Part shown: positions 1,477 to 5,941 of the stretch, in pieces
How the letters are laid out: every line of letters begins with the position of its first letter
Position numbering within the stretch: the stretch's first letter is position 1
DNA from: Nitrospira sp.
GTDB taxonomy: Bacteria > Nitrospirota > Nitrospiria > Nitrospirales > Nitrospiraceae
Assembly (NCBI GenBank): GCA_015904045.1
Contig: JABMDG010000055.1
Span: 8,559 to 15,419 of the forward strand
Reading direction: 5' to 3'
DNA: 6,861 nt
Notes under the pieces: generated by a model
The model's input: only the letters and a program-made list of their open reading frames with translations
Databases searched by the model: none
What the model was told of the DNA's origin: nothing
Position numbers and translations under genes: made by a program

Positions 1477-1773
1477 ATGGAAAGTACCCATAAGATACTG
1501 GTTGCCATCGAAGCCTCTGAGGCGTCCATGAAGGCTGTTGCCTATGTGGCTGAGATGGTACGGGGGCGTGAGGCGATCCACATCTGCCTGTTCCACGCAC
1601 TCCCTCCAATTCCACCACGACTCTTGGAGTACGGAGGAACGGAAGACCCTCAAAATGAGCAGGCGCTCCATACGGAGCTCAAATCCGCACAGACGGAATG
1701 GAAGACGGAAGGTGCGTTCTGGTGGTCAATGGAGGTCTTTTCACTTCTCTTGGGAAAGGGAAAATGCCGATGA
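1477..1773 (+). CDS. Universal stress protein fragment (N-terminal part only)
   Basis: ATG 1477 has a ribosome site (AAGGA at 1467-1471). The 98-residue product starts with the UspA strand-loop-helix HKILVAIEASEASMKAVAY (residues 5-23). Glu12 sits where the family usually has the nucleotide-contacting Asp. A second strand, AIHICLFHALPP, and a helical region to about residue 75 follow. UspA domains are usually ~140-150 residues and carry the ATP-binding G-x2-G-x9-G-S/T motif near the C-terminus. That part is absent, and no other frame downstream contains it, so this is a truncation and not a simple frameshift. Nucleotide binding is therefore doubtful. The TGA stop overlaps the likely smbP start as ATGA at 1770-1773, which would allow translational coupling. 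It could be a decaying gene kept as a leader for smbP. Confidence 0.72.
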   Translation: MESTHKILVAIEASEASMKAVAYVAEMVRGREAIHICLFHALPPIPPRLLEYGGTEDPQNEQALHTELKSAQTEWKTEGAFWWSMEVFSLLLGKGKCR

Positions 1774-2156: not shown

Positions 2157-2329
2157 GATAGCAAGGCAAAGAGGGTGGGTGGAATAGAGAAAGGTGTCAG
2201 AAACAATTGTTCACCAGTTCCTGCTTTGTCCGCCCGCGTTCTCGCAATATCGCATCCACTGGGAGTCCTGAGGGGCGGGCGACCCGCGAAGCCATCAGAT
2301 AAGTAGCCGTGCTCCCATTCAAATCCGCT

Positions 2330-3022
2330 TTAGAAGTGAACAGAGAGTCCCCCAACCCCATGGACGCCATTCAATGTAAGATCAACGCTACCCCCACCTA
2401 CAATCGATATAGAGTGAGAGGCATGGATGAATTTCCCTTCTGCAAAGGCAGCAATGTGTTTGGTCAGGAATACTTTGACACCCCCAAGCCCCTGAAACGC
2501 TGGTGCCGTATCTCTGCCTTCGTTCGTTCCCGACGTCTGGAAGGTAAGCCGTTGTCCTCCTCCCCCCAGGCCGAGGTAGGGGAACCAGCGGCCGTTTGGA
2601 AGGTCTGGCGTCACACCCATTGGGACACGAGCCAGAACATTAAGACCAAAGTATGTGGCATTGTGATCCAGTGTTGACACGAGAATGCCTGGACCAATGC
2701 TCGACGACAATATTTGCCCACTCGAAGCATCGGGATTATAGTTGGTCACGTCAACTTCCATTCCCACATCGATTCCCAATGTGTTTCGAGGAGCCGTGAT
2801 CCATATCCCAATCTTTCCCCCAAAGGAAGGAGAATTGTCGAGTTTGACATCGTGTAATGTCGGACCACCTAACACAATATCCGTCTTCAATGGGTGCGAA
2901 TACCCTCCGAATCCTGAGATATAGACATCGACCGGTCTGACCCGAACTTCTTCTTCCGCTTGAGCTAGGGAGAAATCACCAAGAACGCAGAGAAGAAGAG
3001 CCGAAACAACGAGCGTCTTCAT
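2330..3022 (-). CDS. Outer-membrane beta-barrel protein
   Basis: The product is 230 residues from the ATG at 3022, chosen because AGGAGG (complement of 3029-3034) lies six bases upstream. A longer reading back to 3205 adds basic, non-conserved residues and would bury the signal peptide. Residues 1-22 are a Sec signal (MKTLVVSALLLCVLG, cleavage after AQA). The mature protein has alternating hydrophobic/polar strands rich in Gly and aromatics: VDVYISGFGGYSHPL, FGGKIGIWI, NTLGIDVGMEVDV, WFPYLGLGGGG, HIAAFAEGKFIH. It ends in Phe (LSVHF), the outer-membrane insertion signal read by the BAM complex. The size fits a small barrel of the OMP_b-brl or OmpW-like type, typically eight strands. Its cargo or role is unknown. 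It converges with smbP across 173 bases that contain no clear terminator. Confidence 0.85.
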   Translation of the reverse strand: MKTLVVSALLLCVLGDFSLAQAEEEVRVRPVDVYISGFGGYSHPLKTDIVLGGPTLHDVKLDNSPSFGGKIGIWITAPRNTLGIDVGMEVDVTNYNPDASSGQILSSSIGPGILVSTLDHNATYFGLNVLARVPMGVTPDLPNGRWFPYLGLGGGGQRLTFQTSGTNEGRDTAPAFQGLGGVKVFLTKHIAAFAEGKFIHASHSISIVGGGSVDLTLNGVHGVGGLSVHF

Positions 3023-3367
3023 GTTTTGCCTCCTGGAAAATAGAGTGAAAGTGGTTTTAGCAGGATGTCCCATCTTTCCTGGCGGCACCTTCTGTTTCAA
3101 GGGACCTGGTATCCGTCGAACCGATCGACTCGTATCGTTGTACCGGATGCCGAAGTGATAGACGCGTTTGAAATGAGGATGCCTTACCGAGGGAGTAACC
3201 GTCAAGAGATGAGCAAACGGGTTTCAGGATCCGGTCCTGCCTTCGTGGTAGGCCGGAAGGCCGGGCGGCGGCTGGGAGAGACGAAGATCTCTCAGCCTCA
3301 CTTGGAGGGAAATTCAGAGTATCCCTGTTTCTTCTGTTGATTCCATTTCCATGGGCGCGAGTGGTGG
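3023..3367. other. Gene-free region between the barrel protein and the rhodanese
   Basis: Open frames here have no ribosome sites and no family resemblance. The part next to 3022 is the leader of the barrel gene. The only marked structure is an imperfect hairpin at 3270-3297: GGCT and GAGAGA (3270-3273, 3276-3281) pair with TCTCTC and AGCC (3288-3297) around a six-base loop, with a two-base bulge. It lies about 70 bases beyond the rhodanese stop, so it could end that transcript, but there is no T tract. The segment 3252-3288 loosely resembles the GC-rich gap segment at 1275-1315. Confidence 0.4.
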
Positions 3368-3742
3368 CTACTTCACAAACGGACGACCGGATTGTTGCCA
3401 GTCGTCGAGATTCATCACCACCGCGTTGATGTGTGTGAACCCAAGGTCGGCGAGAGACTGAGCGGCGAGCGAGGCGCGGTTGCCGCTCTGGCATTGCAGG
3501 ACGATCGGCTGATCCAGCTGCGTGTTTGCCGGATACCCCACGTAGTTCCAGATTTTGAATTCAATCACGCCGCGGGGAATGTTGATGGCGCCCGGCACAT
3601 GGCCTGCGGCATATTCCTGCGGCTCGCGCACATCCACGATCAGGGTCCCCGGAGCGTGTGTTTGAGCTATTCGAGCGGAACCACAATCCCGGCTGGGGTC
3701 TGCGCCTGTACATTCGGGAATACATCTTTCTCTACATTTCAA
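3368..3742 (-). CDS. Rhodanese-domain protein, 5' end probably lost
   Basis: Residues ~32-124 form a single rhodanese domain, the fold that carries sulfur as a Cys persulfide. It shows GTLIVDVREPQEYAAGHVPG, AINIPRG, then the active-site loop C84-Q-S-G-N-R89 (C-x4-R) and the late DLGFTHINAVVMNLDDW. The first ~30 residues (many Cys and Arg, starting at TTG with no ribosome site) do not resemble a rhodanese or a signal peptide, and they lie antisense to a radical SAM remnant. The usual N-terminal helix before the LIVDVREP strand is missing in this frame. In another minus frame, 3670-3726 reads VFPNVQAQTPAGIVVPLE, then a TAG at 3667-3669, and would need a frameshift to join the domain. Either way the start is broken. 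The conserved core suggests recent loss, and translation is doubtful. Confidence 0.65.
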   Translation of the reverse strand: MKCRERCIPECTGADPSRDCGSARIAQTHAPGTLIVDVREPQEYAAGHVPGAINIPRGVIEFKIWNYVGYPANTQLDQPIVLQCQSGNRASLAAQSLADLGFTHINAVVMNLDDWQQSGRPFVK

Positions 3743-3828
3743 AATTTGGTTTAGGAAAGCGGCAGGATCTGCAGTATCGGGCTGTGAAAACAGCTGGAGT
3801 GACTCCGACGCTGGCGGGGAAAATGTGA
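3652..3828 (+). pseudogene. C-terminal remnant of a radical SAM paralogue
   Basis: The + frame ending at TGA 3826-3828 contains REYIFLYISKFG (3715-3750). The intact radical SAM protein downstream has REHVFLYISKFG at 5684-5719. Aligned without gaps over 27 residues (3670-3750 against 5639-5719), 14 are identical by my count, including N, W and R upstream of the shared block. Many codons differ only at the third base, as expected if both copies were once under selection as protein. After the block the tail is LGKRQDLQYRAV and then diverges. There is no start and no cluster-binding domain; upstream of about 3650 the DNA is the antisense of the rhodanese domain. The best reading is a mostly deleted tandem paralogue, or the tail of a related gene brought in by recombination. 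Confidence 0.7.
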
Positions 3829-3834
3829 TGGGTG

Positions 3835-3920
3835 CGTATTTCGTGAAGCGTGAAGCGTATCTCGCATGCAGGACTGTATCGTTTGCGAACGACGAGATAC
3901 GAGATACGAACGACGAATGA
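3835..3920. repeat. Heptanucleotide-phased repeat, left of the radical SAM gene
   Basis: Seven-base units in a common CG phase run from 3835: CGTATTT, CGTGAAG twice, CGTATCT, CGCATGC; then a 16-base irregular centre; then CGAACGA, CGAGATA twice, CGAACGA and CGAATGA. The left half uses CGT units and the right half CGA units. CGTATCTCG at 3856-3864 is the exact reverse complement of CGAGATACG at 3893-3901, so the patch can fold into a hairpin. The last unit, CGAATGA at 3914-3920, contains the likely ATG of the radical SAM gene. An 18-base stretch (3840-3857) recurs exactly at 5871-5888. Confidence 0.7.
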
Positions 3921-5863
3921 GTGACTTACTCCAAATAGATGGTCTTGCTCCGCTGGCCAAGGGGACCAGGAAGCAATCCAAGGTTATGTTGTTGTTCCCG
4001 CCCGAGTGGGTGCCGACAGCGCCCTATCTCGCCTTGCCTTCCTTGACTGCTGTGTTGCGGGAAGCGGGCCATACCGTCATCCAGCGCGATATCAATATCG
4101 GGATGTGGGATCACTTCTTCAGTATGGAGTTCCTGATCTGGGTGAAGGCCCGATTGGGCATGCAGCTCAAGGCGCTGCAAGACAAAGAGAAGGCGGGAAC
4201 TCTGACGGAACGGGAGTTGGGTCAAAAAGCGGTCGTGGAACAGGCCTATGATGTCGATGTGTTCGACCTGGCGGAACGGGCGGAAGATGCCAAGCTGATC
4301 GTGCGTGGCGAACGGTTCTATGAGGCGGAGACGCTGGACGGGGCGCTCAATACCTTCCGCGAGACCATGGCCTATATCTCCGCCGCCTACTATCCCGCCT
4401 CACTCGTCTTCTATCCGATGGAAAGCAACCTGGGCTATCGCCCCGGGGTCTCGAAAGAAGTCTTTGCCTGTTTGGAGGATGAGCAGGTGAACGTCTATCG
4501 GGATCTCTGCAATCAGTTGGTCATGCCGGAGGTGGCGAGAGAGCAGCCGGATGTGATCGGGATTTCCATTGGGACGCAGATGCAGTTTTTAGCGGGTTTG
4601 ACCTTCGCGAAGATGATCAAGGACACGTTCCCGCAGATCCCTGTGGTCGTGGGCGGCAACGTGATCACGCGCCTTCAAGAAGATCTCGCGCATCATGAGC
4701 GGTTCTTCACGGATGTCTTTGACTCGGCGATTCTCTACGAGGGGGAGCATGCCCTCTTGTGGCTCATTGAAGCCTTGAACGGACAGCGGCCGCTCGCCTC
4801 CGTGCCCAACTTGATTTATCGCGATGCCGCAGGTCTTCACCGGAATACCGAAGTCTATACCGAGAAGACGGCCTCGCTGCCTTTGCCGGACTTCGAGGGG
4901 ATGCCGCTCGACCGCTACTTCGTTCCGGAACTGATCATTCCCTACCTGGCGACGCGCGGCTGCTATTGGGGGCGCTGTACGTTTTGCGACCACGGCCAGG
5001 GGTATTTCGATCAGTACCGGGGGATGCCGGCCCAGTTGGTGGTCGAACAGATCAAGGCGCTGCGGGACAAGTACCGCTGCCGGCATTTCCTCTTTTCCGA
5101 TGAATCCTATCCGCCGGCGCTGTTCAAGAAAATCTCACAACTGCTGATCGACCACGACATCGGGATCAAATGGACAACGCTCATCCGGTTCGAAGAGACG
5201 CTTCAGGACCAGGCCACCTGGGATCTCGCGGCCAAGTCCGGCTGCTGTACGCTCTATTACGGCATGGAATCGGCAAACGAACGTGTCTTGAATCTCATGG
5301 ATAAGCACGCCACGAAGCGTGTGATCCAGCGCAATCTCCAGATGGCGGCGAAGGCCGGGATCTGGAACCATGTGATGGCGTTCTACGGATTCCCGGGCGA
5401 AACGTTCGAGGAGGCGATGGAAACACGGCAGTTCGTCCTCGAGAACCAGCCGGTGATTCACTCACTGGAGCTGTTCTATTTTGTGGCCTACCGCCACACG
5501 CCCATGGTGCGGAAGCCGGAACAATTCGGGATTACGATTCACAAGCAGGAGGAGTACGATCTCCCTCTGGACTACTACTACACGCTGAATGACCCCAGCA
5601 CGCTCTCGTGCCTCGACGCGATGCAGCTCTGCGAAGAGTTCTACAAGAACGATTTTCACCCCTGGGCTGTGCGCGTCAACTCACGTGAACATGTGTTTCT
5701 GTATATCTCGAAATTCGGCACCAACCGGCTGCCGCAAATCTACGCGCAGCAAACCCAGCCGGTCGGATCGCCGGAAGGGGTGTCAGGCTTGATTACGTGG
5801 CCGGTGGCGCGTCCGGATGGAGAGGAAGGGATGAGCCGGGTCACGAGTCATGATGTGACGTGA
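3917..5863 (+). CDS. B12-binding-domain radical SAM protein
   Basis: From ATG 3917 the product is 648 residues. An upstream ATG at 3866 would add 17 Arg/Cys-rich residues made of repeat sequence; neither start has a ribosome site. Residues ~22-60 begin a cobalamin-type Rossmann domain (VMLLFPPEW, LPSLTAVLREAGH) without the DxHxxG base-off motif. A helical insertion of about 140 residues follows, then PDVIGISIG (211-219), VVGGN (244-248) and YEGE (274-277). The radical SAM core has RGCYWGRCTFCDHG with Cys349, Cys354 and Cys357, so spacing is C-x4-C-x2-C, not the usual C-x3-C-x2-C. GMES (449-452) and FPGET (492-496) are typical core motifs. The cluster should cleave S-adenosylmethionine to a 5'-deoxyadenosyl radical. 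The substrate is unknown; relatives include methyltransferases and lipid or peptide modifiers. Heptad repeats flank it, and a paralogue remnant lies upstream. Confidence 0.88.
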   Translation: MSDLLQIDGLAPLAKGTRKQSKVMLLFPPEWVPTAPYLALPSLTAVLREAGHTVIQRDINIGMWDHFFSMEFLIWVKARLGMQLKALQDKEKAGTLTERELGQKAVVEQAYDVDVFDLAERAEDAKLIVRGERFYEAETLDGALNTFRETMAYISAAYYPASLVFYPMESNLGYRPGVSKEVFACLEDEQVNVYRDLCNQLVMPEVAREQPDVIGISIGTQMQFLAGLTFAKMIKDTFPQIPVVVGGNVITRLQEDLAHHERFFTDVFDSAILYEGEHALLWLIEALNGQRPLASVPNLIYRDAAGLHRNTEVYTEKTASLPLPDFEGMPLDRYFVPELIIPYLATRGCYWGRCTFCDHGQGYFDQYRGMPAQLVVEQIKALRDKYRCRHFLFSDESYPPALFKKISQLLIDHDIGIKWTTLIRFEETLQDQATWDLAAKSGCCTLYYGMESANERVLNLMDKHATKRVIQRNLQMAAKAGIWNHVMAFYGFPGETFEEAMETRQFVLENQPVIHSLELFYFVAYRHTPMVRKPEQFGITIHKQEEYDLPLDYYYTLNDPSTLSCLDAMQLCEEFYKNDFHPWAVRVNSREHVFLYISKFGTNRLPQIYAQQTQPVGSPEGVSGLITWPVARPDGEEGMSRVTSHDVT

Positions 5864-5941
5864 AGCGTCATTCGTGAAGCGTGAAGCGCGGGATTGGCCT
5901 GTTCTGCGAGATACGAGATGCGAGATACGTTTTACGAGGTC
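5859..5941. repeat. Heptanucleotide-phased repeat, right of the radical SAM gene
   Basis: Seven-base units run from 5859: CGTGAAG, CGTCATT, CGTGAAG, CGTGAAG, CGCGGGA; then a 13-base centre; then CGAGATA, CGAGATG, CGAGATA, CGTTTTA and CGAGGTC. The layout of CGT units, centre and CGA units matches the copy at 3835-3920, with an exact 18-base match (5871-5888 to 3840-3857). The first unit supplies the TGA stop of the radical SAM gene (5861-5863), and CGTTTTA supplies the TAA stop of the minus-strand gene (5932-5934), so the patch also lies at a convergent gene junction. Confidence 0.7.

What the first reader, a model, noticed from the sequence alone, without database searches (positions are those of the whole stretch)
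3652..3828. Unannotated radical SAM tail lying antisense to the start of a rhodanese gene
The + strand encodes REYIFLYISKFG, nearly identical to the REHVFLYISKFG near the C-terminus of the intact radical SAM gene 1.97 kb downstream; 14 of 27 residues match without gaps, with mostly silent codon differences. The remnant starts where the rhodanese domain ends, so this is a visible recombination or deletion scar. It implies that two related B12-type radical SAM genes once stood in tandem here.
Basis: seen in the sequence. Interest (0 to 1): 0.72.

Follow-up and report, generated by a model that had tools for sequence, protein, structure and literature searches.

The report
Stub of a deleted neighbouring enzyme gene
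In a Nitrospira-type bacterium, the first of two neighbouring vitamin-B12-dependent enzyme genes appears to have been deleted down to its last 58 codons, and the same cut removed the start of a rhodanese gene; it is a clear but ordinary deletion scar.

Summary
Window 3652-3828 (+) is the last 58 codons and stop of a B12-binding radical SAM gene (RSAM1). RSAM1 stands directly upstream of the gene at 3917-5863 (RSAM2) in 73 of the 73 related loci that hold at least 400 bp upstream (7 of 80 were too short); 72 of 73 match the remnant. RSAM1 and RSAM2 are about 47% identical. The remnant matches RSAM1 tails up to 53/58 but RSAM2's tail 17/55. Homology breaks at 3649/3650. On the left lies a rhodanese gene (-) without its first 58-60 codons; its ORF's first 29 codons are antisense RSAM1. 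In 5 of 10 genomes with both genes on one contig, the rhodanese lies 2.5-32 kb upstream of RSAM1 in the orientation that one deletion would turn into this joint. One genome (G030) has lost RSAM1 independently. The joint shares only a few bases; a chimeric contig is less likely but not excluded, because the joint is known from one contig only and the genes just left of it have other nearest relatives than the rest. A second scar of this kind lies at 1702. Ordinary gene debris, low novelty.

The parts
3652..3828 (+). remnant: last 58 codons and TGA stop of the missing upstream radical SAM gene (RSAM1)
   Evidence: 86% identical to L003 RSAM1 residues 591-648; up to 53/58 to the 120 listed RSAM1 tails; tblastn match upstream of RSAM2 in 72 of 73 loci
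3649..3651 (.). junction, placed to within a few bases
   Evidence: 62 of 79 genomes had a match to a probe across it; every listed match lies either on the rhodanese side (ending at or before 3649) or on the radical SAM side (starting at or after 3650), none spans; blastn of loci starts at 3650/3652
3368..3655 (-). 5'-truncated rhodanese gene: domain from just before TLIVDVREP to the stop, with the CQSGNR loop kept; apparent signal peptide and about 58-60 N-terminal codons lost
   Evidence: Pfam PF00581 E=3e-15; 96% identical over 75% of the query to 152-aa relatives P0003 and P0004
3656..3742 (-). first 29 codons of the rhodanese-frame ORF; antisense of the RSAM1 remnant, not rhodanese sequence
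   Evidence: its matches in relatives are the antisense of RSAM1 tails
3917..5863 (+). RSAM2: B12-binding radical SAM gene, 648 aa, open throughout; downstream partner of the missing RSAM1
   Evidence: PF02310 and PF04055 above cut-off; up to 96% identical to relatives
1477..1702 (+). universal stress protein gene truncated after codon 75; second scar at 1702
   Evidence: L003 has the whole gene; relatives are mostly 168 aa and match over 75 residues
1702..2169 (+). segment with the small metal-binding protein gene, joined to the truncated USP at 1702
   Evidence: PF16785; in 6 genomes the match begins at exactly 1702

Best explanation
3652-3828 is the surviving 3' end of RSAM1, the upstream member of a tandem pair of B12-binding radical SAM genes of Nitrospira and relatives. 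A deletion with one end inside a divergently oriented rhodanese gene (after about codon 58-60) and the other about 574 codons into RSAM1 (632 aa in the listed relatives) removed the rhodanese start, whatever lay between, and most of RSAM1, and left RSAM2 whole. It probably arose by end joining at no or a few shared bases. Shown: the remnant, the sharp break, the pair in relatives, the missing rhodanese head. Inferred: a single deletion rather than several steps, the mechanism of joining, and loss of RSAM1 function (no genome is held, so a copy elsewhere cannot be excluded). On the layout of genome G062 the lost piece would be about 4.2 kb; on other layouts more.
For: Tandem RSAM1-RSAM2 in 73 of 73 loci, tail match in 72. 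The remnant is closer to RSAM1 tails (up to 53/58 among 120 listed) than to RSAM2's tail (17/55) and sits at the usual place before RSAM2. Break at 3649/3650, no spanning match in 79 genomes. Rhodanese 2.5, 19.5, 23, 27 and 32 kb upstream of RSAM1 in the window's orientation in G062, G064, G060, G009 and G068: 5 of the 10 genomes whose listed matches put both on one contig (four of the five fetched). Segments 1477-1702 and 1702-2167 left of the joint and RSAM2 right of it share near relatives: G008 95%, 93% and (L033) 93.6%; G003 94%, 86% and (L003) 90.0%. Independent loss of RSAM1 in G030, where RSAM2 survives only from residue 40 and in two frames, with 6.6 kb of gap-free DNA upstream that holds no RSAM1 match, shows that the locus does suffer deletions.
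Against: The joint is known from one contig: of the 120 proteins listed (of 691 found) only P0002, on a contig of 18,191 bases and apparently the window's own, covers the whole query; 0 of 175 genomes hold the 24-base joint at up to 3 mismatches; 0 exact matches in viral contigs. The outer-membrane-type gene and the rhodanese just left of the joint have other best matches (G041 82%; G068 and others) and close orthologues of the rhodanese were not found in G003, G008 or G002. In G043 the rhodanese is 12.6 kb away in the other orientation, and in G016, G025, G044 and G065 more than 90 kb away. In G060 a relative of the window's TPR gene (43-468) lies between rhodanese and RSAM1, whereas in the window it lies beyond the rhodanese, so gene order is not simply colinear and more than one step may be needed.
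Confidence: 0.86

Rival explanations
1. The junction is an assembly or library chimera: two pieces of Nitrospira DNA joined in the data, with RSAM1 intact in the living cell.
For: The joint is known from one contig only, a second private joint lies at 1702, and the genes at 2314-3649 have other nearest relatives than the flanks.
Against: The two sides share only a few bases at the joint, whereas assemblers join on tens of shared bases (general knowledge, not tested). 1477-2167 and RSAM2 have common near relatives. The remnant has D16G at a column that is D in 62 of 62 tails and D or E in 120 of 120 listed proteins, a hint of relaxed selection; weak, since 4 of 62 intact tails also carry a private change at a column conserved at 95%.
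Confidence: 0.12
2. The remnant is a partial duplication of the end of RSAM2 rather than the stub of a lost upstream gene.
For: It is similar to the RSAM2 tail.
Against: Far closer to RSAM1 tails, at the position where RSAM1 ends in relatives, with a usual spacing to RSAM2 (88 bases here; 10-171 in the 40 loci printed).
Confidence: 0.01
3. Chance similarity, or constrained antisense of a real rhodanese N-terminus.
For: The rhodanese-frame ORF runs through the antisense of the remnant.
Against: The rhodanese relatives looked at have a quite different N-terminus; shuffle control 0 of 5000.
Confidence: 0.01

Closest known systems
RSAM1, upstream gene of the tandem B12-binding radical SAM pair of Nitrospira (e.g. 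L003:5946-7892; source names such as 'radical SAM protein' or 'cobalamin-dependent protein')
   Same: the last 58 residues are homologous, in the same place and orientation before RSAM2
   Different: about 574 upstream codons, with the B12-binding and radical SAM domains, are gone
Single-domain rhodanese of Nitrospira with an apparent signal peptide (P0003, P0004, 152 aa)
   Same: domain from TLIVDVREP to the C-terminus, 96% identical, CQSGNR loop kept
   Different: N-terminal 58-60 codons gone; no own start codon
Bacterial gene remnants left by deletion at little or no shared sequence (a general class, recalled)
   Same: two truncated genes meeting at a sharp joint
   Different: nothing notable

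Membership tests
B12-binding radical SAM protein (PF02310 + PF04055) | B12-binding domain and radical SAM domain | tested here: not met
   The remnant (58 aa) has no Pfam match, as expected of a C-terminal stub; RSAM2 and nearly all listed RSAM1 relatives carry both
RSAM1 orthologue (upstream member of the pair) | sequence and position directly upstream of RSAM2 | tested here: met
   as a remnant, not as a working gene
Named B12 radical SAM subfamilies of NCBIfam (PhpK, RiPP C-methyltransferase, BchE, HpnJ, HpnR and others) | score above the curated cut-off | tested here: not met
   RSAM2 best 147 bits against a cut-off of 600; L003 RSAM1 best 122 against 282; none of the 16 and 15 families listed reaches its cut-off
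Rhodanese (PF00581) | rhodanese domain match above cut-off | tested here: met
   56.8 bits against 22.2, from profile position 10 on
Intact Nitrospira rhodanese of the P0003/P0004 type | N-terminal region with apparent signal peptide | tested here: not met
   homology stops at about residue 30 of the ORF; the signal peptide itself was judged by eye, not by a predictor

The most novel reading that the evidence does not exclude
The stretch upstream of the radical SAM pair is a recombination hot spot that repeatedly cuts or copies part of RSAM1: here a 3' stub; in G030 loss of all RSAM1 and of the head of RSAM2; in L042, L061 and L067 extra copies of the RSAM1 5' end upstream of the gene, in L042 flanking a small cassette with a ParE-like toxin gene. 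A bolder variant is that the hybrid ORF (rhodanese domain read from antisense RSAM1 DNA) is expressed as a new cytoplasmic rhodanese; its domain shows no decay, but no good start site was seen.
Probability: 0.15. Interest if true: 0.4.

Novelty: new member of a known kind. Interest (0 to 1): 0.2.

Why it matters
It brings out a tandem pair of B12 radical SAM genes, without an assigned function in the libraries searched, that most of the Nitrospira-type genomes searched carry, and a lineage that seems to keep only the downstream member. If real, such a strain is a natural test of whether the two enzymes depend on each other. Otherwise it is ordinary genome decay.

Tried and rejected
Junction in viral contigs: no exact match. 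Junction in 175 family genomes by pattern with up to 3 mismatches: none. Decay test on the rhodanese domain: no sign of decay (1 residue unseen among 111 relatives that could be set in register, 0 at columns conserved at 95%; 8 of the 119 proteins P0003-P0121 were dropped because they did not fit the register), so its inactivity rests on the lost head and start, not on mutations. Decay test on the remnant: 2 residues unseen among 62 tails, 1 of them at a conserved column; but 9 of 62 intact tails have 2 or more unseen and 4 of 62 have one at a conserved column; 10 of the 72 tails found were left out because they were not 58 residues long. Silent and amino-acid-changing codon differences of the remnant (9 and 8 against L003) are not clearly out of line with those between intact tails (13 and 10 for L003 against L001). 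A head fragment of RSAM1 in the window: none found. First idea that L033's RSAM1 is frameshifted and L038's truncated: rejected, both contain runs of N. Papers: 'Nitrospira' with 'B12-binding domain-containing radical SAM', 0 papers; a looser search found 11 papers holding at least 4 of 5 terms, 10 listed, none evidently about this locus from the listing; no paper was opened.

Full report
The window is Nitrospira-type DNA: the loci that match it best are from Nitrospira or Nitrospiraceae records. No genome is held for it. The protein database lists two of its ORFs without a source on a contig of 18,191 bases (P0002, P0242), so the window appears to be a slice of that contig.

The observation. 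Frame 3652-3828 (+) encodes 58 residues and a stop. It aligns to the C-terminal region of the downstream radical SAM protein (RSAM2, 3917-5863) with 17/55 identities, E=1e-8. In 5000 residue shuffles the best score was 54 against 82 observed, and in a stepped six-frame scan the best stretch not overlapping the remnant (RSAM2's own frame left out) scored 45.

What it is. One scan of genome contigs with RSAM2 found 164 relatives, of which the tool kept the best 80. Seven of these hold less than 400 bp upstream of RSAM2 and were set aside. In the remaining 73 of 73 a second radical SAM gene, whole or cut by a contig end, lies upstream, with a tail match to the remnant in 72; in L061 the tail is altered. 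Of all 80 loci, 50 hold a full-length RSAM1 without stops, 11 are cut by a contig end, 7 have none in view (the short ones), and 12 needed a look. Of these 12, L017, L018, L022, L026, L028 and L053 have stops only at or before the likely ATG, outside the gene (in L053 the alignment shows the stop just before the MKIEYSKG start); L033 and L038 contain runs of N; L042, L061 and L067 carry extra copies of the head; L076 is split and was not examined. RSAM1 and RSAM2 are about 47% identical, so they are old paralogues. The remnant is 86% identical to L003 RSAM1 residues 591-648 and up to 53/58 identical to the tails of the 120 proteins listed (of 459 found).

How general is the pair? In 79 genomes of the genus of G003, listed matches of at least 75% identity to L003 RSAM1 occur in 62 (counted by hand; completeness of these genomes is not told). 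Fifteen show neither RSAM1 nor RSAM2 at E 1e-100, only a third relative of about 35% or nothing. Two show RSAM2 alone: G033, cut by the contig end just upstream, and G030. In G030 RSAM2 is present only from residue 40, in two frames, and 6.6 kb of gap-free DNA upstream holds no RSAM1 match. So G030 is an independent loss of RSAM1 in which RSAM2 was hit too.

The joint. A 201-base probe across it matched 62 of 79 genomes; each listed match lies wholly left (ending at or before 3649) or right (starting at or after 3650) (up to 10 first-look candidates per genome were scored). A 24-base pattern with up to 3 mismatches was absent from 175 of 175 genomes. Left of the joint lies a rhodanese gene on the - strand. 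Relatives of 152 aa have an N-terminal region ending ...YRKVVENPGGTLIVDVREP. In the window the homology begins at (P)GTLIVDVREP, so about 58-60 codons are missing. The 29 codons before it in the ORF are antisense of the RSAM1 tail. The only ATG, GTG or TTG in that frame before the domain is a TTG at 3742, with no evident ribosome-binding site (by eye). Compared with the DNA of relatives, the two sides can share only a few bases, which suits end joining rather than homologous recombination; the exact number needs the ancestral rhodanese DNA.

Was the rhodanese a neighbour? From the matches listed, 10 genomes show a close rhodanese and RSAM1 on one contig. In 5 (G062, G064, G060, G009, G068) it lies 2.5, 19.5, 23, 27 and 32 kb upstream in the window's orientation. 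In G043 it is 12.6 kb away in the other orientation, and in G016, G025, G044 and G065 more than 90 kb away (the matches in G043 and G044 are short, 64-66 bases, and may be paralogues). In G062 the rhodanese is itself a pseudogene (frameshift and stops). In G060 a relative of the window's TPR gene lies between rhodanese and RSAM1, which is not the window's order. Equal contig lengths suggest linkage of rhodanese and RSAM1 in Nitrospira sp. ST-bin4 (30,695 bases: P0034 and P0220) and of rhodanese and USP in two other contigs (43,716: P0042 and P0281; 4,088: P0003 and P0251); this is inference from the listings. On the G062 layout the lost piece is about 4.2 kb.

A second scar. At 1702 a universal stress protein gene is cut after codon 75 and joined to the leader of a small metal-binding protein gene. 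L003 has the whole USP and the metal-binding gene 3.3 kb apart, upstream of RSAM1 and in the same order. So the window reads as the L003 order USP - SMBP - RSAM1 - RSAM2 with two deletions, plus an outer-membrane-type gene and the rhodanese, which L003 lacks there. In G008 the order is different: SMBP stands before USP, on another contig than the radical SAM pair. Of 47 proteins found with the USP-frame ORF only the window's own P0242 matches along its whole length; two 168-aa USPs cover 95% of it at 60-61%.

Real or chimeric? For real: little shared sequence at either joint; common near relatives of 1477-2167 and RSAM2; a change at an otherwise invariant residue of the remnant (D16G), which is weak evidence; and an independent loss of RSAM1 in G030. 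Against: both joints are private to one contig, and the genes at 2314-3649 have other best matches than their flanks. I put a true deletion at about 0.86.

Function. RSAM2 stays open and full length, and the remnant itself very likely does nothing. The pair's function is unassigned: all NCBIfam matches are below cut-off.

Noticed in passing
window 1702: Second scar: a universal stress protein gene cut after codon 75 and joined to the leader of a small metal-binding protein gene; the joint was found only in the window's own contig.
   Followed up: partly
L123:6639-8430 (G030:C55): Independent loss of RSAM1: RSAM2 survives only from residue 40 and in two frames, with no RSAM1 match in 6.6 kb of gap-free DNA upstream.
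   Followed up: partly
L042:1313-2523, L061:3760-6226, L067:187-1003: Extra copies of the RSAM1 5' end (101-175 bases, 82-91% identical) upstream of the gene in 3 of 80 loci; in L042 they flank small ORFs, one with a ParE-like toxin domain.
   Followed up: partly
window 3652-3828 and 3917-5863: Mixed kinship: RSAM2 is nearest to L033 and L002 (93.6%) while the remnant is only 75% identical to theirs and nearest to L003 (87%); L002's RSAM1 tail equals that of L046, so that lineage may have exchanged RSAM1.
   Followed up: partly
L117:2980-3434: In genome G062 the same rhodanese gene is independently dead (frameshift and two stops, one in the active-site loop).
   Followed up: no
window 3840-3916 and 5868-5935: Intergenic repeats of the type CGTGAAGCGTGAAGCG and ACGAGATACGAGATACG stand on both sides of RSAM2 and recur in part in L001, L002 and L008.
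   Followed up: no
window 3371-3898 (-): The protein database holds a 176-aa chimeric rhodanese (P0002) across the scar that appears to begin at an ATC codon; a likely mis-annotation.
   Followed up: partly
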